A DNA stretch of 64,000 bases, from assembly GCF_016598595.1 (NCBI RefSeq), contig NZ_CP066788.1:62001-126000 (forward strand), given 5' to 3'. The position numbers and the translations under genes are program-made. The notes beneath the pieces are model-generated. The model was not told the DNA's origin, did no database searches, and saw only the letters and a program-made list of their open reading frames with translations. Origin of the DNA: Martelella lutilitoris (GTDB lineage Bacteria > Pseudomonadota > Alphaproteobacteria > Rhizobiales > Rhizobiaceae). Each line of letters begins with the position of its first letter. The stretch's first letter is position 1. Positions 45,215 through 62,046 of the stretch are shown here, piece by piece.

Positions 45215-46021
45215 CTAGCCCACCCTCGTACGCCGGCTCGCTGCCCGTTCCAGATCGGCTCCCATGCGGGCGGATAGCCGCGTTGCAATACGCCTGACAT
45301 TGGCGATGGTGCGTTCTCTGTCAATGAGCTCGTCGGCCCGAAGACTGACGGCAACCCCTGCGATCGGGAAGTTGCGTGAATCGAGAACCGACGCACCAAA
45401 ACAGATAATGCCTTCGGCGACTTGCTGGTTGTCGACGGAGTAGCCTCTTTCGCGCGTCTCGCGCAGTTCCGCGAGCAACTGCTCCACGGTCTGGACGCTG
45501 GAGGACGTACGCGGCGGCGGCAGCCCGTCCGCATAGATCCTCTTGACTTCGAAATCGCTCATATGGCTCAGGAAGGCCTTTCCGGTCGCGGTAAAGGCCG
45601 CCGGAAGCCGCATACCGGCGCGGAAATCGACAAGCGAATGGCTGATGTCCGAATTGCGCGCCGCGATGTAGACCACTTCGTTGCCTTCGAGAACGGTAAG
45701 CGTAATCGTTGCACCCGGAAGCTCGGTTTCCCTGTCCCAGATCGAGGCGAACTCGGTGGCCACGTCGGACTGCTCCATAAAGGCGTTCGACCAGCGCATC
45801 AGATGGGGACCGAGCTGATAGGTCTGGTCAGGGCGGCGGATCAGCAGTCCCAGTTCCACAAGCGTGCGGCACAGCATGTGAACCGAGCTTTTAGCGATTC
45901 CAAGCTCGCGCGCGAGATCTGACAGGTTGGGATGGCTTCGGTTTCTCGCCACCAGATCGAGTATGCGCGTCGCCCGCTCCACGGCGGGCACCAGTTTTGT
46001 CTGTTCTTGATCCATCGCCAA
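45215..46021 (-). CDS. IclR-family transcriptional regulator
   Basis: 268 residues. N-terminal winged helix (VERATRILDLVARNRSHPNL, ELGIAKSSVHMLCRTLVELG) and C-terminal ligand domain with the IclR hallmark YSVDNQQVAEGIICFGASVL. It is divergent from the 16-kb operon and probably controls it through the inverted repeats at 46061-46115. In Agrobacterium the lactonase operon blcABC is repressed by the IclR-type BlcR, so the regulator type fits the proposed pathway. The ligand may be a lactone, hydroxy acid or semialdehyde. Confidence 0.9.
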   Translation of the reverse strand: MAMDQEQTKLVPAVERATRILDLVARNRSHPNLSDLARELGIAKSSVHMLCRTLVELGLLIRRPDQTYQLGPHLMRWSNAFMEQSDVATEFASIWDRETELPGATITLTVLEGNEVVYIAARNSDISHSLVDFRAGMRLPAAFTATGKAFLSHMSDFEVKRIYADGLPPPRTSSSVQTVEQLLAELRETRERGYSVDNQQVAEGIICFGASVLDSRNFPIAGVAVSLRADELIDRERTIANVRRIATRLSARMGADLERAASRRTRVG

Positions 46022-46202: not shown

Positions 46203-46592
46203 ATGGTGATGAGCAAGAGAGACTGGGCCATCCGTTTCGCGGAAGCGTCCGACGGCGATCGGACGATCGGCGCGATGGCGCGCTATTTCACCTGTACTTA
46301 CCTTTGGGACATGGGCACCGCGAAGATCATCATTCGGATGATCGACGGCAAGGTCAGCGAGATCAATATCGACCCCGCGCCGATGGATGCCTATGACTTT
46401 GCCTTGCGGGCCGGTCCTGCTACGTGGCGCGAATTTGCCAAGCCGATACCGGAACCGATGTATCACGGCATCTGGTCGGCAAGCTTCCGGCGGGACCTGA
46501 AGCTTGAGGGCAATCTTCTCGTCCTCATGCAGAACCTGCGCAATTTTACCGTTCAGTTTGAACTGCTTCGCAAAGTCGGCGTGCCGGTCTGA
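46203..46592 (+). CDS. SCP2-like small protein
   Basis: 129 residues. The pattern ARYFTCTYLWDMGTAKIIIR, GKVSEINIDPAPMDAYDFAL, RAGPATWREFAKP and KLEGNLLVLMQNLRNF fits the sterol-carrier-protein-2 fold (beta sheet plus hydrophobic pocket). Such domains bind lipids or acyl compounds. First gene of the operon, preceded by GGGAGGGGG. It may bind the hydrophobic substrate or an acyl intermediate; the ligand is unknown. Confidence 0.7.
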   Translation: MVMSKRDWAIRFAEASDGDRTIGAMARYFTCTYLWDMGTAKIIIRMIDGKVSEINIDPAPMDAYDFALRAGPATWREFAKPIPEPMYHGIWSASFRRDLKLEGNLLVLMQNLRNFTVQFELLRKVGVPV

Positions 46593-46647: not shown

Positions 46648-47496
46648 ATGGCCAAGCATTCGCCTGTCATCGGACGTTATGTCACGATTGATGTCGACGG
46701 CTACGAGTACAAGGTCTTTTACCTGCGCAACGGCGAGGGCGTGCCGCTTGTCTGCCAGCATACGGCCGGCTGCCACAATCACCAATGGCGCGATCTTCTG
46801 GAAGATAGCGAAATTACGGCCGACTACGATGTGATTGCCTATGATCTTGCCCGTCACGGCAAGTCCGACCCGCCGCTCAACAAGGAGTGGTGGACGGAAG
46901 AATATCGGCTGACGACCGAGCACTATATGAACTTCATTACCGCGTTTTGCGATGCGCTCGATCTGGAAAATCCGATCTTCATGGGCTCTTCCTTCGGCGG
47001 CAATATCGCCTTGCAGCTCGCGCTCCATCACCCGGACCGTTTCCGCGCGGTCATCCCGGTCGAGGCCGCAGAGCATGCGCCCGGCTTCTTTCTCGACTGG
47101 TGGCGCCATCCGCATGCCAACGCTGCCCAGGTCTGCGCCTCCGGCGTATGGGACCTGATGGCGCCGCAAAGCCCGGACAAGGACCGCTGGCTCACCTGGC
47201 ACTACTACACGCAAGGGTCCGAGGTTTTCAAAGGCGACCTCTACTTCTACTCCGTCGACCATGACCTCCGGACCAAACTTGGCGGTATCGATACCCGTCA
47301 GTGCCCGGTGATCATGATGACCGGCACCTATGACTATCTCACACCGCCTGATGCGACGGAGAACACCGCGCGGCAGATCCCGGGCGGCATCTATATCGAG
47401 ATGGAGGATATCGGGCATTTCCCGATGTCGGAAAACTACCCGCTTTTCGCCGTGTATTTGAAGGAAGCGCTGCGGCTCATCGAGGAACGCACATGA
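46648..47496 (+). CDS. Alpha/beta-hydrolase-fold enzyme
   Basis: 282 residues from the ATG at 46648; an upstream in-frame start overlaps the SCP2 gene. The nucleophile elbow is FMGSSFGGNIAL (G-x-S-x-G, Ser nucleophile); oxyanion region CQHTAGCHNHQWRD; acid in MTGTYDYLTPP; His in EDIGHFPMSENYP. Probably an esterase or lactone/ester hydrolase feeding the pathway. It is followed 55 bases later by the lactonase gene. Confidence 0.87.
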   Translation: MAKHSPVIGRYVTIDVDGYEYKVFYLRNGEGVPLVCQHTAGCHNHQWRDLLEDSEITADYDVIAYDLARHGKSDPPLNKEWWTEEYRLTTEHYMNFITAFCDALDLENPIFMGSSFGGNIALQLALHHPDRFRAVIPVEAAEHAPGFFLDWWRHPHANAAQVCASGVWDLMAPQSPDKDRWLTWHYYTQGSEVFKGDLYFYSVDHDLRTKLGGIDTRQCPVIMMTGTYDYLTPPDATENTARQIPGGIYIEMEDIGHFPMSENYPLFAVYLKEALRLIEERT

Positions 47497-47551: not shown

Positions 47552-48490
47552 ATGAAAATCATTGAATTTGACGAAAAGGGACAGCGCCGGGAAACCCGGC
47601 CGGAAACGCTTTCGGGAAGCGGAACGGCCAGCAGTCTCGCACCGCGTCCGGGCATCCGGTCGCCTGCCGCCGATCGTTCGCGGCGCAGAAGCGGCAGTTC
47701 CTCGGGTATCGAGCTTCATATGTTCCAGACAGGGATTCTGAAGACCAAGCTCAAGTTCATCAAGATGAACCAGGGGGAGAGCGATTTCGACATTCCCGTT
47801 CCGTGGTTCCTGATCAAGCATCCGGCAGGCAATATCGTCATCGACGGCGGCAATGCGATCGAGGCCGCGATCGACAAGCGGGCGCATTGGGGCGCGGTTG
47901 TCGACGCCTATGATCCGGTCATGGAGGTTTCGGAGAACTGCGCCGATCAGTGCCGCTCGGTCGGCGTCGACCCCGGCTCGGTCCGCTACGTGCTGCAATC
48001 CCATCTCCATCTCGACCACACCGGGGCAATCGGTCACTTTCCGAACGCGCAGATCATCTGCCAGCGCGCGGAATATGACTATGCGTTCAACCCGCACTGG
48101 TTCGCTCGCGGCGCCTATATCCGCGCCGACTTCGACAGGCCCGGCCTCAACTGGAAGCTCCTCGGCGGGGAATACACCGACAATTACGATCTGTTCGGCG
48201 ACGGCGCCGTCCGCATGATCTTCACGCCGGGTCATGCGCCGGGGCATCAGTCCTTTCTGATCACCTTGCCGAAAACCGGGCCGGTGCTGCTGACCATCGA
48301 TGCTGCCTACACGCTCGACCACTGGGAAAACAAGGCATTGCCCGGCCTTGTCCATTCGTCTGCCGATGCCGCGAATTCCGTGGCGAAGCTGCGCCGGATC
48401 GCGAGCGACACGAATGCGATGGTGGTTACGGGACACGATCCCGACAACTGGCAGACCTTTTTGAAGGCGCCGCACGACTTTTATGACTGA
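47552..48490 (+). CDS. Metallo-beta-lactamase-fold lactonase (AHL lactonase/BlcC-like)
   Basis: 312 residues. The dimetal motif H-x-H-x-D-H is SHLHLDHTGAIGHF, with further ligands in FTPGHAPGHQS, TIDAAYTLD and VTGHDPDNW; the spacing and Tyr match the AttM/AiiA lactonase group. Such enzymes open N-acyl-homoserine lactones or gamma-butyrolactone. About 52 N-terminal residues precede the domain: MKIIEFDEKGQRRETRPETL plus a Ser/Arg-rich linker. That start motif recurs at the C-terminus of the ABC ATPase of the operon. Given the downstream Fe-ADH and semialdehyde dehydrogenase, a gamma-lactone substrate is likely. Confidence 0.85.
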   Translation: MKIIEFDEKGQRRETRPETLSGSGTASSLAPRPGIRSPAADRSRRRSGSSSGIELHMFQTGILKTKLKFIKMNQGESDFDIPVPWFLIKHPAGNIVIDGGNAIEAAIDKRAHWGAVVDAYDPVMEVSENCADQCRSVGVDPGSVRYVLQSHLHLDHTGAIGHFPNAQIICQRAEYDYAFNPHWFARGAYIRADFDRPGLNWKLLGGEYTDNYDLFGDGAVRMIFTPGHAPGHQSFLITLPKTGPVLLTIDAAYTLDHWENKALPGLVHSSADAANSVAKLRRIASDTNAMVVTGHDPDNWQTFLKAPHDFYD

Positions 48491-48616
48491 GCGGACTTCG
48501 GGCCGGGCCCGGTGGGAGTGACTGCAAGGCCGCGGCCGGCGGCCAGTAAGGAAGAGCCGGCCTGTTTCCGTTGAACTGCCGCACAGGTGGTCTGTGCTTT
48601 CGAAGAGGAGGAACCG

Positions 48617-49786
48617 ATGACTTTTTTGAGAACCCTGGCAATTGCCGTTGGCATGGCCGCGTCCTGTGCGGCTTTTGCACATGCCGACGGCGTCGATTCT
48701 ATCAATCCGGATGTCGCCAAACGCCTTTACAATCCCGACATGCTGGACCCGGCGCAGCCGGTGGCCGCAAGCCCGTTGCAGGATTTCAAGGCGAAGAACC
48801 CGCCGCCGTGGAAAATCGGCTATGCGTCGTCTTATGCCGGCAACACGTGGCGTGCCGGGGCGATGGACGAACTCCAGAACGAGATCATTCCGAAATGGAA
48901 GGAACTCGGCCTGATCAGCGACGTTGTGATCACGCAGTCCAACCTGAGTGACTCGACGCAGATCCAGCAGATGCGCCAGCTTGTCGACCAGGGCGTCGAC
49001 GCCATTTTCGTGTGCTGCTCCAATCCCACCGCGCTCAACCAGACCGTACAATATGCCTATGACAAGGGTGTGCCGGTGTTCTCGATGACGGGCTATCTGA
49101 CAGCCCCTTCGGCAATGAATTCCTCGGTCAACTACCAGGTTGCGGGCTTCGAGATCGGCAAGCGCCTGGCAGAGGAACTGGGCGGAGAGGGCAATGTCCT
49201 GATCGTCGAAGGCATCCCCGGCACGTCCGGTTCCGACAGTCAGGATCGCGGCGTGAAAGCGGGGCTTGCCACCGCGCCGGGCATCAAGATCGTCGGCTCG
49301 GTCGCAGGCATGTGGACCGACCAGATCGCACAGGGAGAAGTGCAGAAATGGCTGGCCACTCATCCGGGCAAGCTTGATGCCATCGCCGTCCAGTCCGCGG
49401 CTGAAATGGGTGTTCTGCGGGCGCTCAAACAGTCCGGTCGCACCGGCGTCAAGGTCACCGTCGGCGGCGAACTGGGCGCGCTTTGCACCTGGCGCAAGAA
49501 TCCGGACCTGATTGACGCCGCCGTTCAGACCTGGCCGCCGGGCGATGATGTCCAGCTGATCTGGGATGTCATGATGCGCACGCTGCAGGGGCAGGGACCG
49601 AAGATCCAGTCCGTTCTCGTCGATCCTGTCGTGCTGACCTATGAGGACGTCGCGAAAATCCTTCCGGAGGATTGCGACGAGAACAGCCAGGCCTGGCTCA
49701 ATGTCGGCAAGGACAACTGGGGCTCGCAGGCCTATCTGAACGACTTCTTCATGAAGCCCGCCGATCCGACAGCATACAAGCCCTGA
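48617..49786 (+). CDS. ABC importer substrate-binding protein (PBP family 4, RbsB type)
   Basis: 389 residues from the ATG at 48617 (site GAGGAGGAA). Signal peptide MTFLRTLAIAVGMAASCAAF, ending AHADG. Mature part shows WKIGYASSYAGNTWRAGAMD, FVCCSNPTALNQTVQYAYDK and NVLIVEGIPGTSGSDSQDRG, typical of the sugar-type family 4 proteins. The Cys pair in FVCCSN is unusual. In this operon the ligand may be a lactone, hydroxy acid or sugar derivative rather than a simple sugar. Confidence 0.9.
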   Translation: MTFLRTLAIAVGMAASCAAFAHADGVDSINPDVAKRLYNPDMLDPAQPVAASPLQDFKAKNPPPWKIGYASSYAGNTWRAGAMDELQNEIIPKWKELGLISDVVITQSNLSDSTQIQQMRQLVDQGVDAIFVCCSNPTALNQTVQYAYDKGVPVFSMTGYLTAPSAMNSSVNYQVAGFEIGKRLAEELGGEGNVLIVEGIPGTSGSDSQDRGVKAGLATAPGIKIVGSVAGMWTDQIAQGEVQKWLATHPGKLDAIAVQSAAEMGVLRALKQSGRTGVKVTVGGELGALCTWRKNPDLIDAAVQTWPPGDDVQLIWDVMMRTLQGQGPKIQSVLVDPVVLTYEDVAKILPEDCDENSQAWLNVGKDNWGSQAYLNDFFMKPADPTAYKP

Positions 49787-49818: not shown

Positions 49819-49853
49819 CAAGCGTCTTGAGATTTCACCGGGATACGATCGCC

Positions 49854-51644
49854 ATGCTGCGCCCAGAAGCCGAGATATCACCAACATCCCACGGTCAGGA
49901 AACGATCGCGGTGCGCAACGTGAAGAAGTTTTTTGGACCGACCCGTGCCCTGAACGGCGCGAGCTTTTCGGCGCGGGCAGGCGAGATTCACGCCATCGTC
50001 GGCGGCAATGGTTGCGGCAAGAGCACCATGGCGAAAGTGGTGTCGGGCGTGCTTCCCTTTGACAGCGGCTCGGTCTCGATTCTCGGCGAAACCCCGACGA
50101 CGCCGGCGGAAAGCCGGGCGCTCGGCATCTCGACCGTCTATCAGGAGGTGCTGGTCGCCGATGAGAGCACGGTCGTCGACAATATATTCATGGGCGCGGA
50201 CGCGCTCTTTTCCAAGGTTCTCTCCCAGGAGCGCAAGGTTGCCCGCGCTGCCGAGCTGATGCTCGACCTTTCCGGAGAGCCCGTCGATCCCTTCGCCATT
50301 GCGGGAACGCTGCCGCTTGGCCTGAAACAGTGGATCACGATTGCCCGTGCGCTGGTCAGCGAACCGAAAGTCCTGATCCTGGACGAGAGCTCCGCGGCGC
50401 TCGACTTCGACAGTACCGAGCGGCTTTTCGCCAAGATGCGGGCGCTGCGCGATGCCGGCGCGACGGTTCTGATCGTCACTCACCGCATTGCCGAACTGAT
50501 CCGCATTTCCGATCGTGCGACGGTGTTGCGCGATGGCTGCGATGTCGGCGTGCTGGAAAAGCATGAGATCACCGAAAAGAACCTCCTGGCGCTGATGACC
50601 GGCGATGAGACCGCCGGCAGCGGCCATCATCAGGAGGCGCCGCGACCGCGGGACGACCGGCTTGCCCTTTTAGCCGAGCGCATCACGCTTTGGGACGGGA
50701 CGGCGCCGTTCGATTTCCATCTGCGGCGCGGAGAAATCGTCGGCATCGCCGGCCTCGACGGCCAGGGGCAGGACGATTTCGTCCGCGCGTTGGCCGGAGT
50801 CGAGCCGCCGCGCAGCGGGCTTGTCCAGGTCGCCGACCGCGACGGCAGGCTTCAGGCGGTTTTCGGACTTGCCGACGCGGTCAAGGGGCGGGTCGCCTAT
50901 GTATCGGGCGACCGCAAGCGCGAAGGCATCTTCGCCTCGCTCTCGATCTTCGAAAACATGGTGATGCCACTCTACCGGGAAAAGAAGCGCGGCGGATTTC
51001 TGGGCATCATCGACAGGCAGACGCTCTCGGCGGTTTTCAAGCGTGAGGCCGAAAACCTGTTGATCAAGTTTGGCGCGCGCGAGGATCGCATAACCTCCCT
51101 TTCCGGCGGCAATCAGCAGAAAGTGCTGATCGGACGGGGGTTTGCCATGCGGCCCGATATCATCGTGCTCAACGATCCCGCGCGCGGGATCGATGTCGGC
51201 GCCAAGAACGAACTCTACAAACATCTCAGAGCCTTCGCGGAGGACGGAAAATCGGTCGTCTACATGTCTTCGGAGCTGGAGGAATTCGTAGGCTTTGCCA
51301 CCCGCGTGATCGTGTTCCGCGACGGCCGCCCCTTTGATGCCTTTGACGGGCGGACGCTCGAGCCGCAAAAGGTGCTTGAGGCGATGTTCGGCCAGACCGA
51401 CGGAAGCGGACTGGCCATGCCCGAGGGGCAGAAACCCGAAGGGTCAGACCGGCCATCGCCGGCGCTCCAGCCGACGGCGGAAGCGCGCGGCCATGCCGCC
51501 GTCGAAACAGCGCTTGTCCCGGCGGCCGCTGATGACGCCGCGCACGAAGCCGCCGATCGCCCGCCGCCCGCACCGTTTCGCAAACCCATCCGGATCATCG
51601 AATTCGATGCCGAGAGCGGCCAAGCCAGAAGCCTTGGCCGATGA
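49854..51644 (+). CDS. ABC importer ATPase, two NBDs, with C-terminal extension
   Basis: 596 residues, about 90 longer than RbsA-type proteins. NBD1: Walker A GGNGCGKSTM, degenerate signature LPLGLKQWITIARA, Walker B VLILDESSAALD. NBD2: degenerate P-loop GLDGQGQDDFV, signature LSGGNQQKVLIGRG, Walker B IIVLNDPARGIDVG with Asn-Asp in place of Asp-Glu. The extension is Pro/Ala-rich (about 515-575) and ends PIRIIEFDAESGQARSLGR, similar to the start of the lactonase. Its stop overlaps the permease start. Start chosen at ATG 49854; a TTG at 49827 is also in frame. Confidence 0.9.
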   Translation: MLRPEAEISPTSHGQETIAVRNVKKFFGPTRALNGASFSARAGEIHAIVGGNGCGKSTMAKVVSGVLPFDSGSVSILGETPTTPAESRALGISTVYQEVLVADESTVVDNIFMGADALFSKVLSQERKVARAAELMLDLSGEPVDPFAIAGTLPLGLKQWITIARALVSEPKVLILDESSAALDFDSTERLFAKMRALRDAGATVLIVTHRIAELIRISDRATVLRDGCDVGVLEKHEITEKNLLALMTGDETAGSGHHQEAPRPRDDRLALLAERITLWDGTAPFDFHLRRGEIVGIAGLDGQGQDDFVRALAGVEPPRSGLVQVADRDGRLQAVFGLADAVKGRVAYVSGDRKREGIFASLSIFENMVMPLYREKKRGGFLGIIDRQTLSAVFKREAENLLIKFGAREDRITSLSGGNQQKVLIGRGFAMRPDIIVLNDPARGIDVGAKNELYKHLRAFAEDGKSVVYMSSELEEFVGFATRVIVFRDGRPFDAFDGRTLEPQKVLEAMFGQTDGSGLAMPEGQKPEGSDRPSPALQPTAEARGHAAVETALVPAAADDAAHEAADRPPPAPFRKPIRIIEFDAESGQARSLGR

Positions 51645-53071
51645 ACAACGCGCTCACCAATACCAGGACGGAAACCGTATCCGATCGCGCTGTCGCCGGG
51701 CAGGCGCAGGGCGGGCGTGCAAATCCGTTTCTTCTGGTTCCGATCACCATGTTCTTCGCGCTGCTCGGTCTTGCGGTGTTGCGCGCGCCGAACCTGATGA
51801 GCAGCAATGGCATCGGCAGCGCCATCATTGTGGCCACGCCGCTGATACTGGCGACCTACGCGCTGATGGCCTCGGTGATCTCCGGTCGGGGCACTGTCGA
51901 TCTGTCGATCGGCCCGCTGATCGGCTTCATCAATGTCACGCTCATCCAGCTTCATGGCGCAGGCGTTATCGGCAGTCCGATCACGATCTTCGTCTACGCC
52001 ATTCTGACCGGCGCGCTTTACCAGTTCATTTTCGCGCTTATCGTAATCTACGTCCGGGTCCAGCCGATCATCGTTTCCCTGTCCGGCTATCTGGCGCTTT
52101 CCGGCATCAATCTCGTGATCTTGCCGCGCCCGGGCGGCATGGCGCCGCAATTCATGGCCGACTGGGGGCTTGGCACCACGATCTTCTCCCCCGTCCTCGC
52201 CATTCTTGTGCTTGCCACCATTGCCTGGGGCCTGTTCTCGCGCACCGCCTTCTTCACGCACCTGCGGCTGATGGGCTCGGACGAACGCGCCGCCTATACC
52301 AGCGGCGTGCCAATCACCGTCGTGCGGATCGGCGCCCATCTGATTTCGGGCGCTTTCGCGGGATTGGCAGCGATAGCGTTCACGGCGCTGATTTCCTCCG
52401 GCGATCCCTCTCAGGGCACCACCTACACGCTGATCGCCGTCACGGCGCTGGTCCTTGGCGGGGCATCGCTTGCCGGCGGACGGGCCAGCGCTTTCGGCTC
52501 TTTCCTTGGCGCGGCGAACCTCTACTTGATCACCTTCGTTCTCGCGACCTTCAATTTCGGCGCGGTGCAGAGCTTCGTCACCAATCTCGCCTATGGTTCG
52601 ATCCTGGTGATCTCGCTGCTGCTCACACTGATCATCCCCTTCATTCAGCGCCATATCCATAATTTCTCGCCGCTTCTTTATTTTGTGGCACTCAGTGTCG
52701 TGGCGCTTGGCGTCATACTGCATGCGACGAATGACGGCCCCGTTCGCGATCCCGCTGAGGTCGAAGCATCGGTTGCCGGTCCTCTTGCGCCGATCGCGCC
52801 GGAGGCGCTCTACGTTGCGCCGCTTGAGGTTGCCCGACCGGATACGCAGACAATCGCGCTTCGCAATCAGGCCGCGCCGTTCGTGCTCGCCGCCCTGCTG
52901 TTCGCCGTCATCGCCTTCTTCGTCCGCACGGCCTTCAACCAGTCCGACCGCCGCAGGATTGCGCCTGTCGCCGCAGTGGTGATCGCGTTGATGGTTCTGC
53001 TCGGCGCATGGCTGATGCGTGAAGGGGTTGCGGCGGGCCGCGCCGGTGTCGAGGTGGAGGAACCGCGATGA
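51641..53071 (+). CDS. ABC importer permease with enlarged C-terminus
   Basis: 476 residues against about 320-350 for RbsC-type permeases. Residues about 30-340 are the family core (VISGRGTVDLSIGPLIGFIN is the G-x-x-D-L-S signature). An additional about 130 residues contain a helix near LLYFVALSVVALGVILHA, a polar periplasmic or cytoplasmic loop (about 365-410) and two further helices (PFVLAALLFAVIAFFV, VAAVVIALMVLLGAWL). Start overlaps the ATPase stop, and its stop overlaps the next permease start (ATGA in both cases). Confidence 0.87.
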   Translation: MNNALTNTRTETVSDRAVAGQAQGGRANPFLLVPITMFFALLGLAVLRAPNLMSSNGIGSAIIVATPLILATYALMASVISGRGTVDLSIGPLIGFINVTLIQLHGAGVIGSPITIFVYAILTGALYQFIFALIVIYVRVQPIIVSLSGYLALSGINLVILPRPGGMAPQFMADWGLGTTIFSPVLAILVLATIAWGLFSRTAFFTHLRLMGSDERAAYTSGVPITVVRIGAHLISGAFAGLAAIAFTALISSGDPSQGTTYTLIAVTALVLGGASLAGGRASAFGSFLGAANLYLITFVLATFNFGAVQSFVTNLAYGSILVISLLLTLIIPFIQRHIHNFSPLLYFVALSVVALGVILHATNDGPVRDPAEVEASVAGPLAPIAPEALYVAPLEVARPDTQTIALRNQAAPFVLAALLFAVIAFFVRTAFNQSDRRRIAPVAAVVIALMVLLGAWLMREGVAAGRAGVEVEEPR

Positions 53072-54490: not shown

Positions 54491-55192
54491 ATGGCAGTTT
54501 TCGAAACGGCGGATCTGACGGCGGCGAGCTATTCGACCGCGCTGTTGGGTCTGGTCGCCACCGCGGCGCTGTTGCTGCTGGGCACGGGCTGGGTCAGGCC
54601 TGCCTGGAAACTGCCGGTTGCCTTGTGCGCGCTTGCCGCGCTGGTGGGCACACTCGCCGTCTTCCAGGCGCGCGAGGCCTGGTCCGTCGCCCAGTCCGTT
54701 CCGGTGGTCTACCACTATGTCGGCTGGGCGATCTCGATGCCGCTGCAAGTGCTGGCTCTCTATTTCTTCGCCGGCCGCACCGCCAAGCTGGGCATGGGCC
54801 TGTTCTGGCGACTTGTCGTCGTGTCCGTGCTGATGGTGTTCGTGCGCTATCTTGGGGAAGCCGGGCTGATGCATGCCACGCTCGCCTTTCTCATCGGGCT
54901 CGTGTTCTGGCTGTATATTCTGGGCGAGTTGTTTTTCGGCCGCATGGACGAGGCGGTTCGCGATTCTCGGAAGCCGGCCGTGCAGCGCGGCTATTTCTGG
55001 CTCAGGCTGATCGTGACGGTGGGTTGGGCAATCTATCCGCTCGGCAATTTCATCACGTCCTTTGGCGGCTACATCGACACCGGAGCGCTTTCGGTGGCCT
55101 ACAACATTGCCGATTTCCTAAACCGGATGGCGTTTGGCGTCGCCGTCCTCGCTGTCGCGATGATGGATGCTGGAGAGACCGCTGATGACTGA
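54491..55192 (+). CDS. Proteorhodopsin-family seven-helix protein lacking the retinal Lys
   Basis: 233 residues, seven membrane helices, clearly microbial rhodopsin. Helix C: VYHYVGWAISMPLQVLALYF; helix D: VFVRYLGEAGLM; helix F: IVTVGWAIYPLGNF (Trp179, Tyr182, Pro183 conserved); helix G: VAYNIADFLNRMAFG. The Schiff-base Lys of bacteriorhodopsin (K216) is Arg212 (codon CGG, 55124-55126). Counterion D85 is Gly78, R82 is His75, donor D96 is Ala89; D212 is kept as Asp208. It cannot form the usual retinal Schiff base, so it is probably a membrane scaffold, sensor or transporter subunit. Start at 54491 by ribosome site GAGAGGG. Confidence 0.85.
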   Translation: MAVFETADLTAASYSTALLGLVATAALLLLGTGWVRPAWKLPVALCALAALVGTLAVFQAREAWSVAQSVPVVYHYVGWAISMPLQVLALYFFAGRTAKLGMGLFWRLVVVSVLMVFVRYLGEAGLMHATLAFLIGLVFWLYILGELFFGRMDEAVRDSRKPAVQRGYFWLRLIVTVGWAIYPLGNFITSFGGYIDTGALSVAYNIADFLNRMAFGVAVLAVAMMDAGETADD

Positions 55193-55253
55193 TTTCTTCG
55201 ATGCCGACCGCAACCGCTCAATCCTGTTAACCTGTGAAGGGATGTTCCAATGA
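55185..55253 (+). CDS. Possible 22-residue coupling peptide
   Basis: ATG at 55185 overlaps the rhodopsin-like stop, and the stop at 55251-55253 overlaps the flotillin ATG (ATGA). The peptide is MTDFFDADRNRSILLTCEGM plus FQ. It may only relay ribosomes from one gene to the next; protein function is not claimed. Confidence 0.25.
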   Translation: MTDFFDADRNRSILLTCEGMFQ

Positions 55254-56989
55254 AGGGCGCAGACATTATTGCAATCATCATCCTGGCGGCGATCGTCATC
55301 GCGGTCTGCGCCTATCTTCTGCACTGGCTCTATCGCCGGTCGACCAAGGACATCTCGTTCGTGCGCACCGGCTTCGGCGGCGAGAAGGTGGTGATGGGCG
55401 GCGGCGCGCTGGTCCTGCCGATCCTTCACGATCTCACCGAGGTCAATATGAACACGCTGCGTCTGGAAATCATCCGGGCGCGTGAGAAGTCCTTGATTAC
55501 GAAGGACCGGATGCGGGTCGAGCTGACAGTGGAATTCTATGTCCGCGTTCACCCCGATAACGACGCGGTGGCAACAGCCGCGCGCTCTCTCGGAAACCGC
55601 ACCATGCACGCAGAAGAGCTGAAGGATCTCATTCAGGGTCGCTTCATCGATGCGATGGGCGGAGCGGCTGCGAAGATGACGCTGGAGCACATCCACGAAA
55701 ACCGCATGGACTTCGTCAAGGAAGTTCGCCGGGAAGTGGCCGAAAGCCTTGCGCTTGACGGCCTGGAGCTGGAATCGGTTTCGCTGACCTCGCTCGACCA
55801 GACCGATATTTCGCTGTTCGACCCGTCGAACACCTTTGATGCGGAAGGCCTGACGATCCTGACCGAGCAGATCGAAAGCCGCAAGAAGAAGCGCAATGAC
55901 ATCGAGAAGGACACGATGATCGCGGTGCGACTGAAGAACCTTGAGGCGGAGAAGCGCTCTCTCGAGATCCAGCGCGACACCGAATATGCGCGTCTCAGTC
56001 ATGAAATGGAGGTCGCCGTCCAGCGGGCCCAACGCAAGACCGAGATCGCCAGCGAGAACGCAGCGCGCGAGCGTGAGATCGAGGCCGTCAAGATCAAGGA
56101 ACGCGAAGCTGTCGAGCGCGCGCGCATTGCCATGGAGCAGGAGCTCGAGCGCATCGAAATCAAGCGCAAGGAAACGCTCCAGCTAGAAGACCAGATGCGT
56201 GAAATCGCCGTTTCCGCGAAATCGAAAGAACGCTCGGAAGCGCAGGCCGAGGCAGAGGCCGCCCGCGCCAGGATGATCGAGGCGCAGGAACGCGTCCAGA
56301 CCATCCGCGACACCGAAATCGCCAACCGCCAGAAGTCGATCGAGCTGATCGAAGCGCAAAAACGCGCGGAATCGGAGGGTACGCGTCTGCGCATTCTCGC
56401 CGAGGCGGAAAAGGAGGCGGCCAAGGATCGCGCCGAAGCGGAGCGCATCACGGTGGCTGCCATGGCGGAACGCTATGCGGTCGAGGCCGAGGGCAAGCAG
56501 AAGCTCAACGAAGCCGAGAATCTCAGAACCGATGCCAGCCGCCGCAGCAGCCTGCACAAGTCGCTGGTCGAGAACCTGCCCGCAATCATTCGCGAAAGCG
56601 TAAAGCCGATGGAGAAGATCGAGGGCATCAAGATCCTTCATGTCGACGGATTGCCCGGCTTTTCCGGCGGCGACGCGGGCGGCGGCCGCTCCGCTGCGGC
56701 CGGCGGCGAAGGCGGCGGCAGGGATGGCGACGGGGCAGGGCAGCCGCGCGACGGCAATCTCGCTGATCAGGTCGTCTCCTCGGCGTTGCGCTATCGCTCG
56801 CAGGCGCCGTTTGTCGACCAGCTTCTGAACGAGATCGGCCTCAGCGGTGATGCGGTCCATCGCACCCTCGCGCTGCAGGATCTTTCCAAGATGGTCTACA
56901 CGACGCCGGAACAGCAGGAGGCCGATGCCAGCAGAAAATTGCCGGGCGGCGGCGCCAAAGCACCGTCCAATCCTGCCGACAGGCACTGA
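55250..56989 (+). CDS. Flotillin/SPFH-domain membrane scaffold protein (YqiK-like)
   Basis: 579 residues. One N-terminal helix (IIAIIILAAIVIAVCAYLL), then the SPFH/Band 7 domain (about 35-210: FVRTGFGGEKVVMGGGALVL, EKSLITKDRMRVELTVEFYV), a very long charged coiled coil (about 210-440, EKRSLEIQRDTEYARL type), and a Gly-rich C-terminal region (about 475-510). Such proteins form oligomeric lipid-domain scaffolds at the inner membrane. Its place between a rhodopsin-like protein and transporters suggests it organises them in the membrane; inference only. Confidence 0.9.
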   Translation: MKGADIIAIIILAAIVIAVCAYLLHWLYRRSTKDISFVRTGFGGEKVVMGGGALVLPILHDLTEVNMNTLRLEIIRAREKSLITKDRMRVELTVEFYVRVHPDNDAVATAARSLGNRTMHAEELKDLIQGRFIDAMGGAAAKMTLEHIHENRMDFVKEVRREVAESLALDGLELESVSLTSLDQTDISLFDPSNTFDAEGLTILTEQIESRKKKRNDIEKDTMIAVRLKNLEAEKRSLEIQRDTEYARLSHEMEVAVQRAQRKTEIASENAAREREIEAVKIKEREAVERARIAMEQELERIEIKRKETLQLEDQMREIAVSAKSKERSEAQAEAEAARARMIEAQERVQTIRDTEIANRQKSIELIEAQKRAESEGTRLRILAEAEKEAAKDRAEAERITVAAMAERYAVEAEGKQKLNEAENLRTDASRRSSLHKSLVENLPAIIRESVKPMEKIEGIKILHVDGLPGFSGGDAGGGRSAAAGGEGGGRDGDGAGQPRDGNLADQVVSSALRYRSQAPFVDQLLNEIGLSGDAVHRTLALQDLSKMVYTTPEQQEADASRKLPGGGAKAPSNPADRH

Positions 56990-57016: not shown

Positions 57017-57442
57017 ATGTCGGGACATGCGAAGGTTGAGCGAAATCTTCTGGTCTTTGCCGCATGGGCGACGTCGGGCTTTTCCGCTCTTGCGTTTTTT
57101 CTGGAGGGTCTTGCACGCGATTCCTACCTCCTGTCGCTGGCGGGCGTCGCCCTGGTCGTCGTCACCTTCGCGATCCATATCGTCATCAACGCGGTGAGCG
57201 ATTGTGGCTTTTCCGCCGGCGAGGCTACGCTCGGCATCGGCGCCTTCGGCGTGCTTGCGCTCGTCTTCATCGCGGCATGGCTTGATGGCGGTCTGACAGC
57301 TGTCGATTACTGGTCAGGGCTCACGCTTTTCGGCGTGCTCGTCTGCGGCTTTCTCCTCTATCTATCAACGCGGCACGGGCTGAGGGGGGCTTTCTCGCGC
57401 TTCCACTTCAAACCGGCGGAAAGCGGGAATGAGCCTCGATGA
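57017..57442 (+). CDS. Small polytopic membrane protein of unknown function
   Basis: 141 residues with four predicted helices (LLVFAAWATSGFSALAFFL, VALVVVTFAIHIVINAV, GIGAFGVLALVFIAAWL, LTLFGVLVCGFLLYL). No family recognised. Stop overlaps the start of the SSS-type transporter (ATGA), so it may be a small subunit of that transporter, as small membrane subunits accompany some SSS members, or a partner of the SPFH protein. Confidence 0.7.
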   Translation: MSGHAKVERNLLVFAAWATSGFSALAFFLEGLARDSYLLSLAGVALVVVTFAIHIVINAVSDCGFSAGEATLGIGAFGVLALVFIAAWLDGGLTAVDYWSGLTLFGVLVCGFLLYLSTRHGLRGAFSRFHFKPAESGNEPR

Positions 57443-59388
57443 GCAGCATTTCCGAATCCGTCTGGTTTCCGCTTTGCAGCCTTCTCTATATCGCCGTGAT
57501 GCTGCACTGGGTACGCGTCTCCGCGCGCATGAATGCCGGGGACGGGGGCTTCTTCTCCGCCGCCCACTCCCTGGCGCCCTGGCTCTCGGCGCTGGTGATT
57601 GCCGGCGCCAGCCTTGCCGCATGGTTCGTGCTCGGCGCGGGCGGCGCCATCAGTGACGACGGGTTCTCGATGCCGGTCTATCTCGTCGGCGGCGTGCTGG
57701 TCGCGCTCCCCGGCATCGTGTTCTTCAAACGGGTGTGGTTTGCCGCGGAACGATTGCGGGTATCGTCTCAGGCCGAGATCTTCCGGGCCTATTTTCAAAG
57801 TCCGTTTCTCGTTGCCGTCGTCGCTCTGGTGGCGGTTCTGTTCGCCATCGGATTTTCCGGCCTGCAGATCAGGGCTTTTGCCAGTATCGCGTCGGTTTTG
57901 AGCGGCGGCGCGCTGTCGCCGCTCGTGGCCAGCACCGTTTTCGGCTTCGTTCTGTTTGCAGGGGTCGGCATCGGCGGCATGCGCGCGCTCGGCTATTTCG
58001 GCTTCATTCAGGCGGCGCTGGTTTTTTGCGCCATTGTTGCGCTGGCGGGTTTTGCGCTTTCGTGGAGCGGCGGCTTTGCTGCGCTCAATGCCAATCTCTA
58101 TCAACTTGCGATGTCGCCGGAGAATGCCCGGTTTTTCAGCGTCGACGGCATTATTCGTTTTACCGGCGGGCTTGGCCGCGGCGGTGACGCGGCAACGTCG
58201 CACACAGCCATCGCCAATCTCAGCCTCGCTTTCGCGCTGATGGGGTTTCAGGCCAGCCCGTTGGTGCTCAAGGTGGTGCTTTCGACGCGCTCGCCGAACG
58301 GTTTTGCCGCCGGGCAGACCTGGGTCACAGCCGGTTTCTTCGGTGCATTGATCATTTTCGCGATCGCGATCGCCGGCCTGGCCGGCCTGCTCGATCCCGC
58401 TCTCAGGCTGGTGCCGCTGCTGGACGCTATGCAGGTTTCTTCGCCCTGGTTTGCGGCCTGGATCTTCATCGGCATCGGCGCCGGCGTCCAGCTCTTGGCC
58501 GGCCTCTCCCTGTTTGTGGCCGGCGAGACACTGGTGCGCCATCTCTACAAGCCGTATTTCAATGCGGCGCTCGGTCAGCGGGCGACAATCACGCTCACCC
58601 GCGTGGTGATCGCCGTACTCACCGTGGCGGCCCTGGTGATGCAGAATCTGACCCCGGTTACCGTGTCGGCGCTCGCTGGCCTGGCCTTGCCCGCTGCGTT
58701 TCAGCTCTGGGTTCCGATGCTCGGCGTGACATGGCTTGGCTGGATCACGCGTCCCGCTGCCGTTATCGGCGTCGGGTTCGGTCTTGCCGGCGTCGTGCTG
58801 ACGGAGCCGCTCGGCTATCAGCTACTCTCGTTCCTGGGGCTGGAGCTGCCCTGGGGGCGCTGGCCGTGGACGATCCATTCCGCCGTCTGGGGCATGGCCG
58901 CCAATGTTACCGCAGTCCTGATCATTTCGGCGATCACAAACCGCAATGCGCTTTGCGAGGAGGCCCGCGAGGTCCGCAAACTCTATGCAACGCTTCTGGC
59001 GTCGGGCGGCGAGGCCCGCCGGTTTCGTGCTTTTGCCTGGTCGGCTGTCCTTGCCTGGTTTTTCCTTGCCGTCGGGCCGGGGCTGATCTTCGGCAACACC
59101 GCCTTCACCGGCGGGGACTCTGCTGCCCCGGTCTGGCTTCTCGGCATGCCTTCGCTTTGGGCCTGGGCGCTCGCCGCCTGGATACTCGGCGTCGGGCTCG
59201 CCTGGTTCCTCAGCTATAAAATGGAGATGGCAAGCCCGGTTACCGTCGAAATACCGCCCTATGAACCGCCGCCGCGCCTTCGGCCGGATCAAAGCCGGGC
59301 CGAGCGGGAGCGGCTCGGTATCCTGGTCATAACCGGAGCCGTCAGCTTCGCTCTGGTTGTCCTTATTGCATTCAGTTTCGGCGGTTGA
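57439..59388 (+). CDS. Sodium:solute symporter (SSS) family transporter
   Basis: 649 residues, 13-15 hydrophobic helices. The core resembles PutP/ActP-type carriers: FFSAAHSLAPWLSALVIAGA near the start, followed by an inverted-repeat-type pattern and a long cytoplasmic-type end (VTVEIPPYEPPPRLRPDQ). It gives the operon a second, sodium-motive-force uptake route next to the ABC importer. The preceding small membrane protein is translationally coupled. The substrate is probably a carboxylate such as a hydroxy acid, by pathway context. Confidence 0.8.
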   Translation: MSSISESVWFPLCSLLYIAVMLHWVRVSARMNAGDGGFFSAAHSLAPWLSALVIAGASLAAWFVLGAGGAISDDGFSMPVYLVGGVLVALPGIVFFKRVWFAAERLRVSSQAEIFRAYFQSPFLVAVVALVAVLFAIGFSGLQIRAFASIASVLSGGALSPLVASTVFGFVLFAGVGIGGMRALGYFGFIQAALVFCAIVALAGFALSWSGGFAALNANLYQLAMSPENARFFSVDGIIRFTGGLGRGGDAATSHTAIANLSLAFALMGFQASPLVLKVVLSTRSPNGFAAGQTWVTAGFFGALIIFAIAIAGLAGLLDPALRLVPLLDAMQVSSPWFAAWIFIGIGAGVQLLAGLSLFVAGETLVRHLYKPYFNAALGQRATITLTRVVIAVLTVAALVMQNLTPVTVSALAGLALPAAFQLWVPMLGVTWLGWITRPAAVIGVGFGLAGVVLTEPLGYQLLSFLGLELPWGRWPWTIHSAVWGMAANVTAVLIISAITNRNALCEEAREVRKLYATLLASGGEARRFRAFAWSAVLAWFFLAVGPGLIFGNTAFTGGDSAAPVWLLGMPSLWAWALAAWILGVGLAWFLSYKMEMASPVTVEIPPYEPPPRLRPDQSRAERERLGILVITGAVSFALVVLIAFSFGG

Positions 59389-59409: not shown

Positions 59410-60567
59410 ATGGATAGATTTGTATTCAACACGGCCAAGTCGATCAGGTTCGGCACTGGCACTTTTGATGAACTGGCCGAACTGGTCGGCGCGCAGGTCG
59501 GCGACCGCATCATGCTCGTGACCGATCCCGGAATGATGGCAACGGGCATGGTGGAGAGAGCGCTGAAGCAGTTTCGCGACGGCGGCATCACGGTCGAACT
59601 GTTCAAGGACGTTGAAGCCGATCCGCCGGAACATGTGGTGCTCGGGGCGGTCGCGGCCGCCCGTTCGGCAGGCGTTGAGGGCATCGTCGGGCTTGGCGGA
59701 GGATCGTCGCTCGATGTTGCCAAGCTTGTCGCGCTGCTGGCGCCGGGAACCGAAACGCTCGCGGATGTATACGGCGTCGGCAAGGCGCGCGGTCCGCGCC
59801 TGCCGCTGATACTCGTGCCGACAACCGCCGGTACCGGTTCGGAGGTCACGCCGATTTCCATCGTCACGACCGGCGCCAGCGAGAAGATGGGCGTCGTCTC
59901 GCCGGTGCTCCTTCCCGATGTCGCGCTCCTTGATCCGGCGCTGACCTATGGCCTGCCGCCGCACATCACGGCTGCGACGGGGATCGATGCGATGGTTCAT
60001 GCCATCGAGGCCTTCGCCTCGGCCAGCCCCAACAACAACCCGCTGTCGCGCATGCTGGCGACGCAGGCGCTGACGTTGATGGGGCGTTCGCTTCTGAAAG
60101 CGGTCCACGACGGCAAGGATGTCGAAGCAAGGTCCGATATGCTCTTGGGGTCGATGCTTGCCGGGCAGGCCTTTGCCAATTCGCCAGTCGCCGCCGTTCA
60201 CGCGCTCGCCTATCCGCTTGGGGGGCACTTTCACATTCCCCACGGACTCTCCAATGCACTGGTTCTGCCGCATGTTCTGCGTTTCAACATCGTGACCACG
60301 CCCGGCCCCTATGCCACGCTTGCACCTTTCGTGTTTCCCGAACTGTCGGCATTTGAGGGACAAGAACGGGCGGCGGCCTTCTGCGAGAAGCTTGCGGACC
60401 TTTCGCGCGCCTGCGGCCTGCCGCAGAATTTGAGGGCAATGGAGATTCCGCGGGACATCCTGCCGAAGCTCGCCTCCGACGCGATGAACCAGACCCGACT
60501 TCTCGTCAACAATCCGCGACCCCTGTCGGAAGCCGATGCGCTTTCGATATACCGCGCGGCTTTCTGA
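59410..60567 (+). CDS. Iron-containing alcohol dehydrogenase (4-hydroxybutyrate DH-like)
   Basis: 385 residues, group III Fe-ADH. NAD-binding GLGGGSSLDVAKLVALL, PTTAGTGSEVTPISI, and metal ligands in GIDAMVHAIEAF (Asp, His) and AVHALAYPLGGHFHIPHGLS (His, His). In blc-type pathways the enzyme (BlcB) oxidises 4-hydroxybutyrate to succinate semialdehyde, which the next gene product could oxidise to succinate. Substrate assignment rests on the neighbours. Confidence 0.9.
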   Translation: MDRFVFNTAKSIRFGTGTFDELAELVGAQVGDRIMLVTDPGMMATGMVERALKQFRDGGITVELFKDVEADPPEHVVLGAVAAARSAGVEGIVGLGGGSSLDVAKLVALLAPGTETLADVYGVGKARGPRLPLILVPTTAGTGSEVTPISIVTTGASEKMGVVSPVLLPDVALLDPALTYGLPPHITAATGIDAMVHAIEAFASASPNNNPLSRMLATQALTLMGRSLLKAVHDGKDVEARSDMLLGSMLAGQAFANSPVAAVHALAYPLGGHFHIPHGLSNALVLPHVLRFNIVTTPGPYATLAPFVFPELSAFEGQERAAAFCEKLADLSRACGLPQNLRAMEIPRDILPKLASDAMNQTRLLVNNPRPLSEADALSIYRAAF

Positions 60568-60591: not shown

Positions 60592-62046
60592 GTGTCACTT
60601 CAACTCCAGGATCCGAGCCTGCTCGAACATCGCGCCTTTCTCGCCGGCACGTGGGTGGAGGCCGAGAAGTCCTTTCCCGTCACGAATCCGGCAACCGGGG
60701 AACGCATTGCCATGGTGGCCGATATTCCGGCTGCCGATGTCGGCAAGGCGATTGACCGCGCTTACGAGGCACAGAAGCGCTGGCGGCGACTGACCGCCAA
60801 GGATCGATCGCAGATCCTGCTTCGGTGGAACAGCCTGCTGCTGGAAAACCAGGAGGATCTGGCGAAAATCCTGACCGCCGAAATGGGCAAGCCGCTTGCC
60901 GAGGCCAGGGGTGAGATTGCCTACGGCGCCTCCTTCATCCAATGGTTCGCCGAAGAGGGACGGCGCATCTATGGCGATGTCATTCCCGGCCATCAGCCCG
61001 ACAAGCGGATCATCACCATCAAGCAGCCGATAGGCGTTGTCGGATCAATCACGCCATGGAATTTTCCCAATGCGATGATCGCCCGCAAGGTCGGCCCGGC
61101 ACTTGCCGCCGGCTGCAGCTTTGTCGGTCGCCCGGCCGAAAAGACCCCGCTTTCGGCGCTTGCCATGGCGGTGCTTGGAGAAAGAGCTGGGATTCCCGAG
61201 GGCGTGCTGTCCATTCTGCCGGGCACCGACTCCAAGGGCATGGGCATGGAATTGTGCACCAATCCCAAGGTGCGCAAGCTCACCTTCACCGGCTCCACTG
61301 AAGTGGGTCGCATCCTGATGCGTCAATGCGCCCACGATGTGAAGAAGCTTTCGCTGGAACTCGGCGGCAATGCGCCTTTCCTGGTCTTCAACGATGCCGA
61401 TCTCGACAAGGCTGTCGAGGGCGCGATAATCGCCAAATTCCGCAATGCCGGGCAGACCTGTGTCTGCGCAAACCGAATCTACGCCCAAAGCGAAATCGCC
61501 GATGCCTTTACCGAAAAGCTGGCCCGGGCAATTACGGGACTGAAGGTCGGAGACGGCATGGCCGAAGGGGTCGCGATCGGCCCGCTCATCGATGACGCGG
61601 CGCTTGCGAAAGTCGAGGATCATGTGGCCGACGCCGTTTCGAAGGGTGCGACCGTGATCGAGGGCGGCAGCCGGTCCGATCTGGGCGGCACGTACTACCG
61701 GCCCACGGTTCTGGGCGGCGTCAAACCCGGCATGAAAATCCTGGCTGAGGAAACCTTCGGGCCGGTCGCGCCGGTGATCAGCTTCAAAACCGTGGATGAA
61801 GGTATCAGGCTCGCCAATGATACCGAGTTCGGCCTTGCCGCCTATTTTTACGCGCGCGACATTTCGACGGTCTGGAAGGTGGCCGAGGAGATCGAGAGCG
61901 GCATGCTCGGCATCAATACGGGTTTGATCTCGACCGCCGAAGCGCCCTTTGGCGGCGTCAAATCCTCCGGCCTCGGGCGGGAAGGTTCCAAGTACGGGAT
62001 CGAGGAATTCCTGGAGATCAAATATCTCTGCATGGCTCTGGACTGA
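60592..62046 (+). CDS. NAD(P)-dependent succinate-semialdehyde-type dehydrogenase (GabD/BlcA-like)
   Basis: 484 residues with a GTG start behind AAGGAAAGGAAC. Conserved aldehyde dehydrogenase sites: ITPWNFPNAMIARKVGPALA, FTGSTEVGRILM, LELGGNAPFLVF (catalytic Glu), FRNAGQTCVCANRIY (catalytic Cys) and EETFGPVAPVI. The closely spaced Cys-Val-Cys is typical of GabD. It would convert succinate semialdehyde to succinate, linking the operon to the TCA cycle. Last gene of the operon. Confidence 0.92.
   Translation: MSLQLQDPSLLEHRAFLAGTWVEAEKSFPVTNPATGERIAMVADIPAADVGKAIDRAYEAQKRWRRLTAKDRSQILLRWNSLLLENQEDLAKILTAEMGKPLAEARGEIAYGASFIQWFAEEGRRIYGDVIPGHQPDKRIITIKQPIGVVGSITPWNFPNAMIARKVGPALAAGCSFVGRPAEKTPLSALAMAVLGERAGIPEGVLSILPGTDSKGMGMELCTNPKVRKLTFTGSTEVGRILMRQCAHDVKKLSLELGGNAPFLVFNDADLDKAVEGAIIAKFRNAGQTCVCANRIYAQSEIADAFTEKLARAITGLKVGDGMAEGVAIGPLIDDAALAKVEDHVADAVSKGATVIEGGSRSDLGGTYYRPTVLGGVKPGMKILAEETFGPVAPVISFKTVDEGIRLANDTEFGLAAYFYARDISTVWKVAEEIESGMLGINTGLISTAEAPFGGVKSSGLGREGSKYGIEEFLEIKYLCMALD

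What the first reader, a model, noticed from the sequence alone, without database searches (positions are those of the whole stretch)
54491..55192. Proteorhodopsin homologue with Arg in place of the retinal-binding Lys, inside a transport/catabolic operon
Sequence shows an unmistakable microbial rhodopsin (helices C, D, F and G match proteorhodopsin, including GWAIYPLG and YNIADF), but Schiff-base Lys is Arg212, counterion Asp is Gly78, helix-C Arg is His75, and the internal donor is Ala89. Asp208 and the retinal-pocket Trp/Pro residues remain. The gene is intact and sits tightly between ABC permeases and a flotillin gene. Rhodopsins without the lysine are known in a few groups, but in those cases the context differs. 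The pattern argues for selection for a non-light function, for example a 7-helix membrane partner of the ABC/SPFH complex, or non-covalent ligand sensing.
Basis: partly seen in the sequence, partly recalled or inferred. Interest (0 to 1): 0.92.

Follow-up and report, generated by a model that had tools for sequence, protein, structure and literature searches.

The report
Blind flotillin-associated rhodopsin in ABC operon
A bacterial relative of a light-driven proton pump has lost the residue that holds its light-absorbing cofactor and is kept as a fixed part of a nutrient-importer and membrane-scaffold gene cluster, so it probably does a membrane job that needs no light.

Summary
In detail: 54491-55192 is an intact rhodopsin gene with Arg at the retinal-lysine position, 49 bp after ABC permeases and 57 bp before a flotillin. 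It is not a new kind. It belongs to the flotillin-associated rhodopsins (FArhodopsins, 2023), whose freshwater members were already reported to lack the lysine, some with Arg.

New here: (1) lysine-less forms make one clade (100/100) with two fixed types; Arg119, at a site I infer lines the pocket, is in 303 of 303. (2) Of 50 such genomes, 48 show exactly one rhodopsin; 2 have the retinal-forming BCD gene above cut-off. (3) In one order, a permease with an N-terminal four-helix extension occurs in 14 genomes, all with a rhodopsin; 23 genomes with the plain permease have none. (4) This operon adds BlcR/AttM-like lactone genes.

Best reading, inferred (0.5): a light-independent seven-helix subunit of a flotillin-scaffolded importer. 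Relatives occur in named strains, so it is testable.

The parts
45215..46021 (-). Divergent IclR-family regulator; closest solved relative is BlcR, repressor of blcABC
   Evidence: 3mq0 at 1.6e-52, next best 1.8e-23; IclR_C and HTH_IclR; in 32 of 34 type-A and 0 of 28 type-B loci
46203..46592 (+). Conserved 129-aa protein of unknown function, possibly the gene the 2023 paper calls sterol-carrier-like
   Evidence: No Pfam hit for the window protein; SCP2 at E 0.062 in 1 of 6 relatives; no PDB hit; in 32 of 34 and 26 of 28 loci and 6 of 6 Lys-bearing operons read
46648..47496 (+). Alpha/beta hydrolase (start chosen by likeness to relatives; the listed ORF begins at 46504)
   Evidence: Abhydrolase_1 6.4e-24; ORF; in 32 of 34 and 26 of 28 loci and 6 of 6 Lys-bearing operons read
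47552..48490 (+). AttM/BlcC-family lactonase (metallo-beta-lactamase fold)
   Evidence: NCBIfam NF045700 420.4 bits against cut-off 390; in 32 of 34 type-A and 1 of 28 type-B loci
48587..49786 (+). Periplasmic substrate-binding protein, CUT2 (sugar) type
   Evidence: Peripla_BP_4 7.2e-37; best solved relative 4rs3, named CUT2, 2e-23
49827..51644 (+). ABC ATPase with two ABC domains, CUT2 type
   Evidence: ABC_tran 1.7e-38, two stretches; below the cut-off of all 25 families shown of 190
51641..53071 (+). ABC permease 1 with a C-terminal transmembrane extension (about residues 326-476)
   Evidence: BPD_transp_2 at 70-323; tail of 134-167 residues with 3-5 hydrophobic segments in 59 of 59 rhodopsin loci scored, 14-20 residues with 0-1 in 14 of 14 rhodopsin-free loci scored
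53068..54441 (+). ABC permease 2 with a four-helix N-terminal extension (about residues 1-137)
   Evidence: BPD_transp_2 at 170-441; helices 12-35, 40-69, 79-107, 114-136 in a model of moderate confidence, pLDDT 71; extension in 14 genomes, all with PF01036; lacking in 23 genomes without it
54491..55192 (+). Lysine-less flotillin-associated rhodopsin (H75, G78, R119, E123, D208, R212)
55124..55126 (+). CGG codon of Arg212, in place of the retinal-binding lysine
   Evidence: Arg here in 33 of 34 type-A loci and 150 of 155 type-A sequences
55250..56989 (+). Flotillin (SPFH plus Flot domain)
   Evidence: Flot 4.3e-34 and Band_7 2.5e-14
57017..57442 (+). Small conserved, probably membrane, protein of 141 aa
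   Evidence: No Pfam family; in 34 of 34 and 27 of 28 loci; alignment
57439..59388 (+). Sodium:solute-symporter-like membrane protein
   Evidence: Weak PF00474 match, E 0.02, below cut-off; in 33 of 34 and 27 of 28 loci
59410..60567 (+). Iron-type alcohol dehydrogenase (place of BlcB; substrate not resolved)
   Evidence: ADH_Fe_C 8.1e-52; below the cut-off of all 18 NCBIfam families listed; in 33 of 34 type-A and 0 of 28 type-B loci
60592..62046 (+). Succinate-semialdehyde dehydrogenase family enzyme
   Evidence: TIGR01780 694.5 bits against cut-off 646.35; an aldehyde dehydrogenase match in 20 of 34 type-A and 5 of 28 type-B loci

Best explanation
Shown: the gene is a lysine-less FArhodopsin under purifying selection, fixed beside a CUT2-type ABC importer and a flotillin. 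Inferred: it works in the dark as a seven-helix membrane subunit of that importer. It packs against the extra transmembrane helices of the rhodopsin-linked permeases, and the flotillin gathers importer, rhodopsin and symporter-like protein into one membrane patch. The former retinal pocket is filled and tied by a buried cluster of two positive and two negative residues (Arg119 and Arg212 with Glu123 and Asp208 here), so the protein is a rigid or allosteric assembly part rather than a photoreceptor. In the window's lineage the imported compound probably feeds lactone/4-hydroxybutyrate/succinic-semialdehyde catabolism.
For: All operon rhodopsins sampled form one clade (100/99) within the proteorhodopsins. 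perm2-FAR-flotillin lie in order on one strand in 33 of 34 and 27 of 28 loci; perm2 was not called in the other two. Extended perm2 in 14 genomes of the order, all with PF01036; plain perm2 in 23, none with PF01036; 16 plain loci held show no FAR or flotillin within about 1.5 kb. Extended perm1 in 59 of 59 rhodopsin loci scored, in 0 of 14 plain ones. Arg119 in 303 of 303; it aligns with Glu120 of PsFAR, one of two residues changed in the solved mutant H84V/E120G. Of 50 lysine-less genomes 48 show one PF01036 match, one none, one two; BCD above cut-off in 2 of 50. Two positive and two negative residues at the six sites in 150 of 155 and 146 of 148, by different residues. dN/dS 0.165, neighbours 0.136-0.257.
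Against: No direct evidence of contact: no complex prediction or pull-down was possible. The operon may have been inherited as a block, so the match of extended permease and rhodopsin may reflect one event, not 14. Ordinary CUT2 importers work without an opsin (recalled). Flotillin alone could explain the neighbourhood. Type B has Leu at 212, so no single pocket chemistry covers both types. 2 of 61 perm2 genes in the rhodopsin loci showed no hydrophobic segment before the core; the cause was not checked. That Arg119 lines the pocket is inferred from alignment and the PsFAR mutant's title, not from a structure of this protein.
Confidence: 0.5

Rival explanations
1. Receptor for a small non-covalent ligand: Arg212 (type A) binds a carboxylate in the old retinal pocket, for example a fatty or hydroxy acid, and the protein reports its presence to the importer or flotillin.
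For: Retinal-free proteoopsin holds decanoate in the pocket with its carboxylate salt-bridged to the retinal lysine (8cnk; PMC11322631, passages). Arg212 would offer a cation at that site. Trp79, Trp179 and Pro183 are kept in nearly all sequences. Haloarchaeal lysine-less opsins with Arg or Leu at this site often lie beside chemotaxis transducers and were proposed as non-light sensors (PMC4915679).
Against: Arg119 and Phe139 replace the glycine or alanine usual in proteorhodopsins in both types. Type B has Leu212 in 146 of 148. No chemotaxis or kinase family was listed for the operon genes scanned.
Confidence: 0.22
2. Microdomain organiser: the rhodopsin works with flotillin to shape a membrane patch and has no specific contact with the importer, which is merely a client.
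For: The 2023 paper proposes microdomain formation from the fixed flotillin pairing (PMC10308929, sections 14 and 18). perm2, rhodopsin and flotillin follow each other in all 60 loci where this could be scored.
Against: The permeases are equally fixed and carry extensions that rhodopsin-free relatives lack, which a passive client would not need.
Confidence: 0.18
3. Light-linked role: it binds retinal non-covalently, or assists a proton-pumping proteorhodopsin in the same cell, as proposed for marine FArhodopsins.
For: Marine FArhodopsin genomes always carried a second, canonical proteorhodopsin (PMC10308929 abstract); lysine-bearing G703 and G780 here have two rhodopsins and BCD. One lysine-less genome, G444, has both too, and a second, G446, has BCD.
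Against: The window's genome has one PF01036 match and no BCD match in a search that found BCD in 10 of 35 genomes. 48 of 50 lysine-less genomes show one rhodopsin; BCD is above cut-off in 2 of 50. Lysine and counterion are both gone. Not excluded: retinal uptake, or other retinal-forming enzymes, which were not searched; many genomes are incomplete bins.
Confidence: 0.04
4. A decaying remnant or a sequencing artefact.
For: Several functional rhodopsin residues are missing.
Against: The same residues recur in 34 loci of other genomes and in the listed database proteins; purifying selection; one intact frame.
Confidence: 0.01

Closest known systems
FArhodopsins (Haro-Moreno et al. 2023, PMC10308929; structures 9r21 and 9r23 of PsFAR)
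   Different: Hosts here are mostly Hyphomicrobiales and Rhodobacterales, 21 of 62 records not flagged as metagenome bins; usually the only rhodopsin found; type-A operons add BlcR/AttM-like genes. Their Table S4 could not be opened, so identity with the reported Arg sequences was not tested.
Haloarchaeal opsin-related proteins (Becker et al. 2016, PMC4915679)
   Same: Schiff-base lysine replaced by Arg in one group and by Leu or another hydrophobic residue in the other; also in genomes lacking retinal genes.
   Different: Closest to sensory opsins, often beside chemotaxis transducers; pocket aromatics lost there, largely kept here. Looks like convergence.
Rh-noK (Yamauchi et al. 2019; known to me here only through passages of PMC10308929)
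   Same: Lysine-less bacterial rhodopsin.
   Different: Xanthorhodopsin-related and in tandem with a working rhodopsin gene.
Retinal-free proteoopsin with decanoate (8cnk; PMC11322631, passages)
   Same: Same fold; shows that the empty pocket can hold a carboxylate.
   Different: Has the lysine; the authors treat the ligand as a placeholder for retinal.
Agrobacterium blcABC/BlcR lactone catabolism (PMC5924552, passages)
   Same: BlcR-like regulator, AttM-family lactonase, an iron-type alcohol dehydrogenase and an SSADH-family enzyme.
   Different: Here they flank an ABC importer, rhodopsin and flotillin; the substrate is untested.

Membership tests
FArhodopsin | Proteorhodopsin-family protein in a clade apart from the pumps | tested here: met
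   All operon rhodopsins sampled, lysine-bearing FArhodopsins included, form one branch, 100/99; Gly145 in 424 of 424 of types A, B and F against Tyr in 40 of 41 other rhodopsins. The program prints a long-branch warning.
FArhodopsin | Adjacent co-oriented flotillin gene | tested here: met
   57-bp gap in the window; perm2-FAR-flotillin in order in 33 of 34 and 27 of 28 loci, perm2 not called in the rest
FArhodopsin | Co-occurrence with a canonical proteorhodopsin (stated for marine FArhodopsins only) | tested here: not met
   One PF01036 match in the window's genome; 48 of 50 relatives likewise. The paper could not test this for freshwater, lysine-less members, so I do not treat it as defining for them.
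Functional retinal-binding microbial rhodopsin | Helix-G lysine and counterion | tested here: not met
   Arg212 and Gly78
Functional retinal-binding microbial rhodopsin | Retinal binding by spectroscopy | not testable with these tools
   Needs purified protein
Blc-type lactone catabolism | AttM/BlcC lactonase, BlcR-like regulator, SSADH-family enzyme | tested here: met
   NF045700 above cut-off; 3mq0 best hit; TIGR01780 above cut-off
Blc-type lactone catabolism | 4-hydroxybutyrate dehydrogenase | tested here: inconclusive
   NF058672 252.5 bits, below cut-off 500
CUT2-type ABC importer | Binding protein, ATPase with two ABC domains, BPD_transp_2 permease | tested here: met

The most novel reading that the evidence does not exclude
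A microbial opsin fold has been recruited as a dedicated, light-independent subunit of an ABC importer, docking on transmembrane extensions that its two permeases gained, with flotillin as scaffold. The recruitment came first, with lysine still present; the pocket was then blocked and the lysine lost once, after which the buried charge balance was rebuilt in two different ways.
Probability: 0.35. Interest if true: 0.85.

Novelty: new member of a known kind. Interest (0 to 1): 0.6.

Why it matters
What FArhodopsins do is open. The 2023 authors worked with single-cell genomes and metagenomes and leaned towards a light-linked helper of a proton pump. The window and its relatives offer a cleaner case: the protein is usually the only rhodopsin found, the BCD gene is usually not found, and the importer permeases carry extra helices. 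Of the 62 loci, 21 come from records not flagged as metagenome bins, among them Hoeflea alexandrii, Ensifer adhaerens Lc04, Roseovarius litoreus DSM 28249 and several Mesorhizobium strains, so deletion, uptake and pull-down tests look possible. A positive result would show an opsin fold serving a transporter without light.

Tried and rejected

Limits. The locus scan used peptide patterns of the window protein, so it favours near relatives; searches scored only the 7998 candidates sharing most words and list the best 120. The sequence sets overlap (locus proteins and database proteins can be the same; P0002 is a near-copy of the window) and are related, so counts are not independent. In one search, 2 of 34 and 2 of 28 loci fail the eight-gene order test for reasons not resolved. 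In one search at most 4 first-look candidates per genome were scored. PF01036 misses some divergent type-B proteins: one genome known to hold one gave no match (G442). Completeness of the 50 genomes was not given.

Literature. I looked for a paper on the PsFAR structures and for opsin-flotillin-ABC work in rhizobia. On FArhodopsin, searches listed PMC10308929 and, in 11, 12 and 62, PMC10308909 (listing only); one search also listed a Guillardia paper on Rh-noK (listing only). This speaks only for the held library.

Full report

FAMILY. FArhodopsins were described by Haro-Moreno et al. 2023 (PMC10308929; I saw the abstract and sections 14, 15, 17 and 18, and passages).

RELATIVES. A scan of species genomes gave 62 loci. 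I of them type A (59-86% identity) and 28 type B (36-42%). Type A has Arg212 in 33 of 34, Gly78 in 34, His75 in 32; type B has Leu212 in 28 of 28 and Arg75 in 28 of 28. With the 240 database proteins listed and the window: type A n=155, Arg212 in 150, Gly78 in 155; type B n=148, Leu212 in 146; Arg119 in 155 and 148. These sets overlap and are capped lists, so rarer variants may be missed. Lysine-bearing FArhodopsins (n=121) have Lys212 in 120, Asp78 in 119 and Glu119 in 105. Arg119 aligns with Glu120 of PsFAR, which the depositors changed together with His84 in 9r23; I found no paper saying why, and that the site lines the pocket is my inference. Counting sites 75, 78, 119, 123, 208 and 212, 150 of 155 type A and 146 of 148 type B carry two positive and two negative residues, but with different arginines.

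TREE. With key columns removed, types A and B form one branch, 100/100, in both trees, and all operon rhodopsins sampled form one branch, 100/99. The fewest changes between Lys and no-Lys is two, which allows one loss for A+B plus one more row. I did not identify that row; one of the 121 sequences of the lysine-bearing set has Glu at 212. The program warns that long branches meet, so the joining of A with B may be less sure than its support.

OPERON. perm2, rhodopsin and flotillin follow each other on one strand in 33 of 34 type-A and 27 of 28 type-B loci; in the other two perm2 was not called. The eight-gene order from binding protein to symporter holds in 30 of 34 and 22 of 28; 2 and 2 fail, 2 and 4 lack a gene call. 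Type A adds an IclR regulator (32 of 34), an AttM-type lactonase (32 of 34), an iron-type alcohol dehydrogenase (33 of 34) and often an aldehyde dehydrogenase (20 of 34); type B has 0, 1, 0 and 5 of 28. The window's regulator is closest to BlcR, its lactonase passes the AttM cut-off and its aldehyde dehydrogenase passes the SSADH cut-off. Agrobacterium blcABC degrades gamma-butyrolactone to 4-hydroxybutyrate and succinic semialdehyde (PMC5924552, passages). One type-B locus, L041, has instead LysR, CoA-transferase and MmgE/PrpD genes. So the transport part is constant while the catabolic part differs between the types.

LYSINE CAME FIRST. Six lysine-bearing loci were read at 19-20 kb (L123, L127-L131). 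All six have both permeases, flotillin, the 129-aa protein (63-66%) and the hydrolase (76-81%) on the rhodopsin's strand; identities are to the window's or to L041's copy, whichever scored best. The binding protein was found in five, on the other strand in two (L127, L128); the symporter match is full length in three and partial, on the other strand, in three. A seventh, L124, is a contig of 4,090 bases and shows only fragments of flotillin and hydrolase beside the rhodopsin. Five loci of canonical proteorhodopsins (L132-L136) have no permease, flotillin, hydrolase or 129-aa match; three have weak, partial matches to the ABC ATPase. The association therefore predates the loss of lysine.

LITTLE LIGHT EQUIPMENT. 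The window's genome has one PF01036 match and no BCD match. Of 35 rhodopsin-bearing genomes in the order, 10 have BCD, so the search works. Of 50 lysine-less genomes (50 of the 62 loci), 48 have one PF01036 match, one (G442) has none although it holds a divergent type-B gene, and one (G444) has two. BCD is above cut-off in two, G444 and G446, and a match below cut-off is in G429. Three genomes with a lysine-bearing FArhodopsin that has Val83 and Ala119 also show a single rhodopsin and no BCD, which is a puzzle. Other retinal sources were not searched, and genome completeness is unknown for the 50.

PERMEASE EXTENSIONS. Among 397 genomes of the order, 37 have a permease-2 relative at E 1e-40 or better. 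In 14 the best match starts at residue 18 or before, and all 14 are on the list of genomes with PF01036; in 23 it starts at 129-148, and none is on that list. The nearest plain relatives are 59-62% identical. In the 16 plain loci held no rhodopsin or flotillin lies in the flank of about 1.5 kb. Before the permease-2 core, 59 of 61 rhodopsin loci show 3-6 hydrophobic segments and 2 show none; the 16 plain loci show 0-2. Permease 1 has a tail of 134-167 residues with 3-5 hydrophobic segments in 59 of 59 rhodopsin loci scored, and 14-20 residues with 0-1 in 14 of 14 plain ones scored. One further genome with an operon-type rhodopsin, G009, gave no permease match; its contig is short. The extension may have arisen once and travelled with the operon, so this is strong linkage, not 14 independent tests.

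MECHANISM. Shown: conservation, operon, permease extensions, no second rhodopsin found in most genomes searched. Inferred: physical contact, dark function, substrate. I commit to a light-independent seven-helix importer subunit in a flotillin patch (0.5). Rivals: carboxylate receptor (0.22; proteoopsin holds decanoate at the lysine), membrane-patch organiser (0.18), light-linked role (0.04), artefact (0.01).

KNOWN PARALLEL. Haloarchaeal opsin-related proteins show the same two replacements, Arg or Leu, often beside chemotaxis transducers (PMC4915679; abstract, passages and part 1 of 2 of section 4). This looks like convergence on retinal-free opsins.

Noticed in passing
L052, about 0.7-2.9 kb, minus strand: A type-B locus (Roseovarius sp. 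UBA3070) has, pointing the other way, a lactonase and a binding protein 73-74% identical to the window's type-A genes: perhaps both operon types side by side.
   Followed up: no
   Followed up: partly
L123, L127, L128, L130, L131: In lysine-bearing operons permease 1 has a tail of over 400 residues with 9-10 hydrophobic segments, far longer than in the lysine-less ones.
   Followed up: partly
L129-L131 (G630, G723, G800): Lysine-bearing FArhodopsins with Val83 and Ala119, where most others have His or Phe and Glu, in genomes with one rhodopsin found and no BCD: perhaps users of scavenged retinal.
   Followed up: partly
L060 (uncultured Ectothiorhodospiraceae) and L058 (labelled Gammaproteobacteria): Type-B operons in metagenome bins labelled Gammaproteobacteria, so the operon may have crossed classes, or the bins are mixed.
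   Followed up: no
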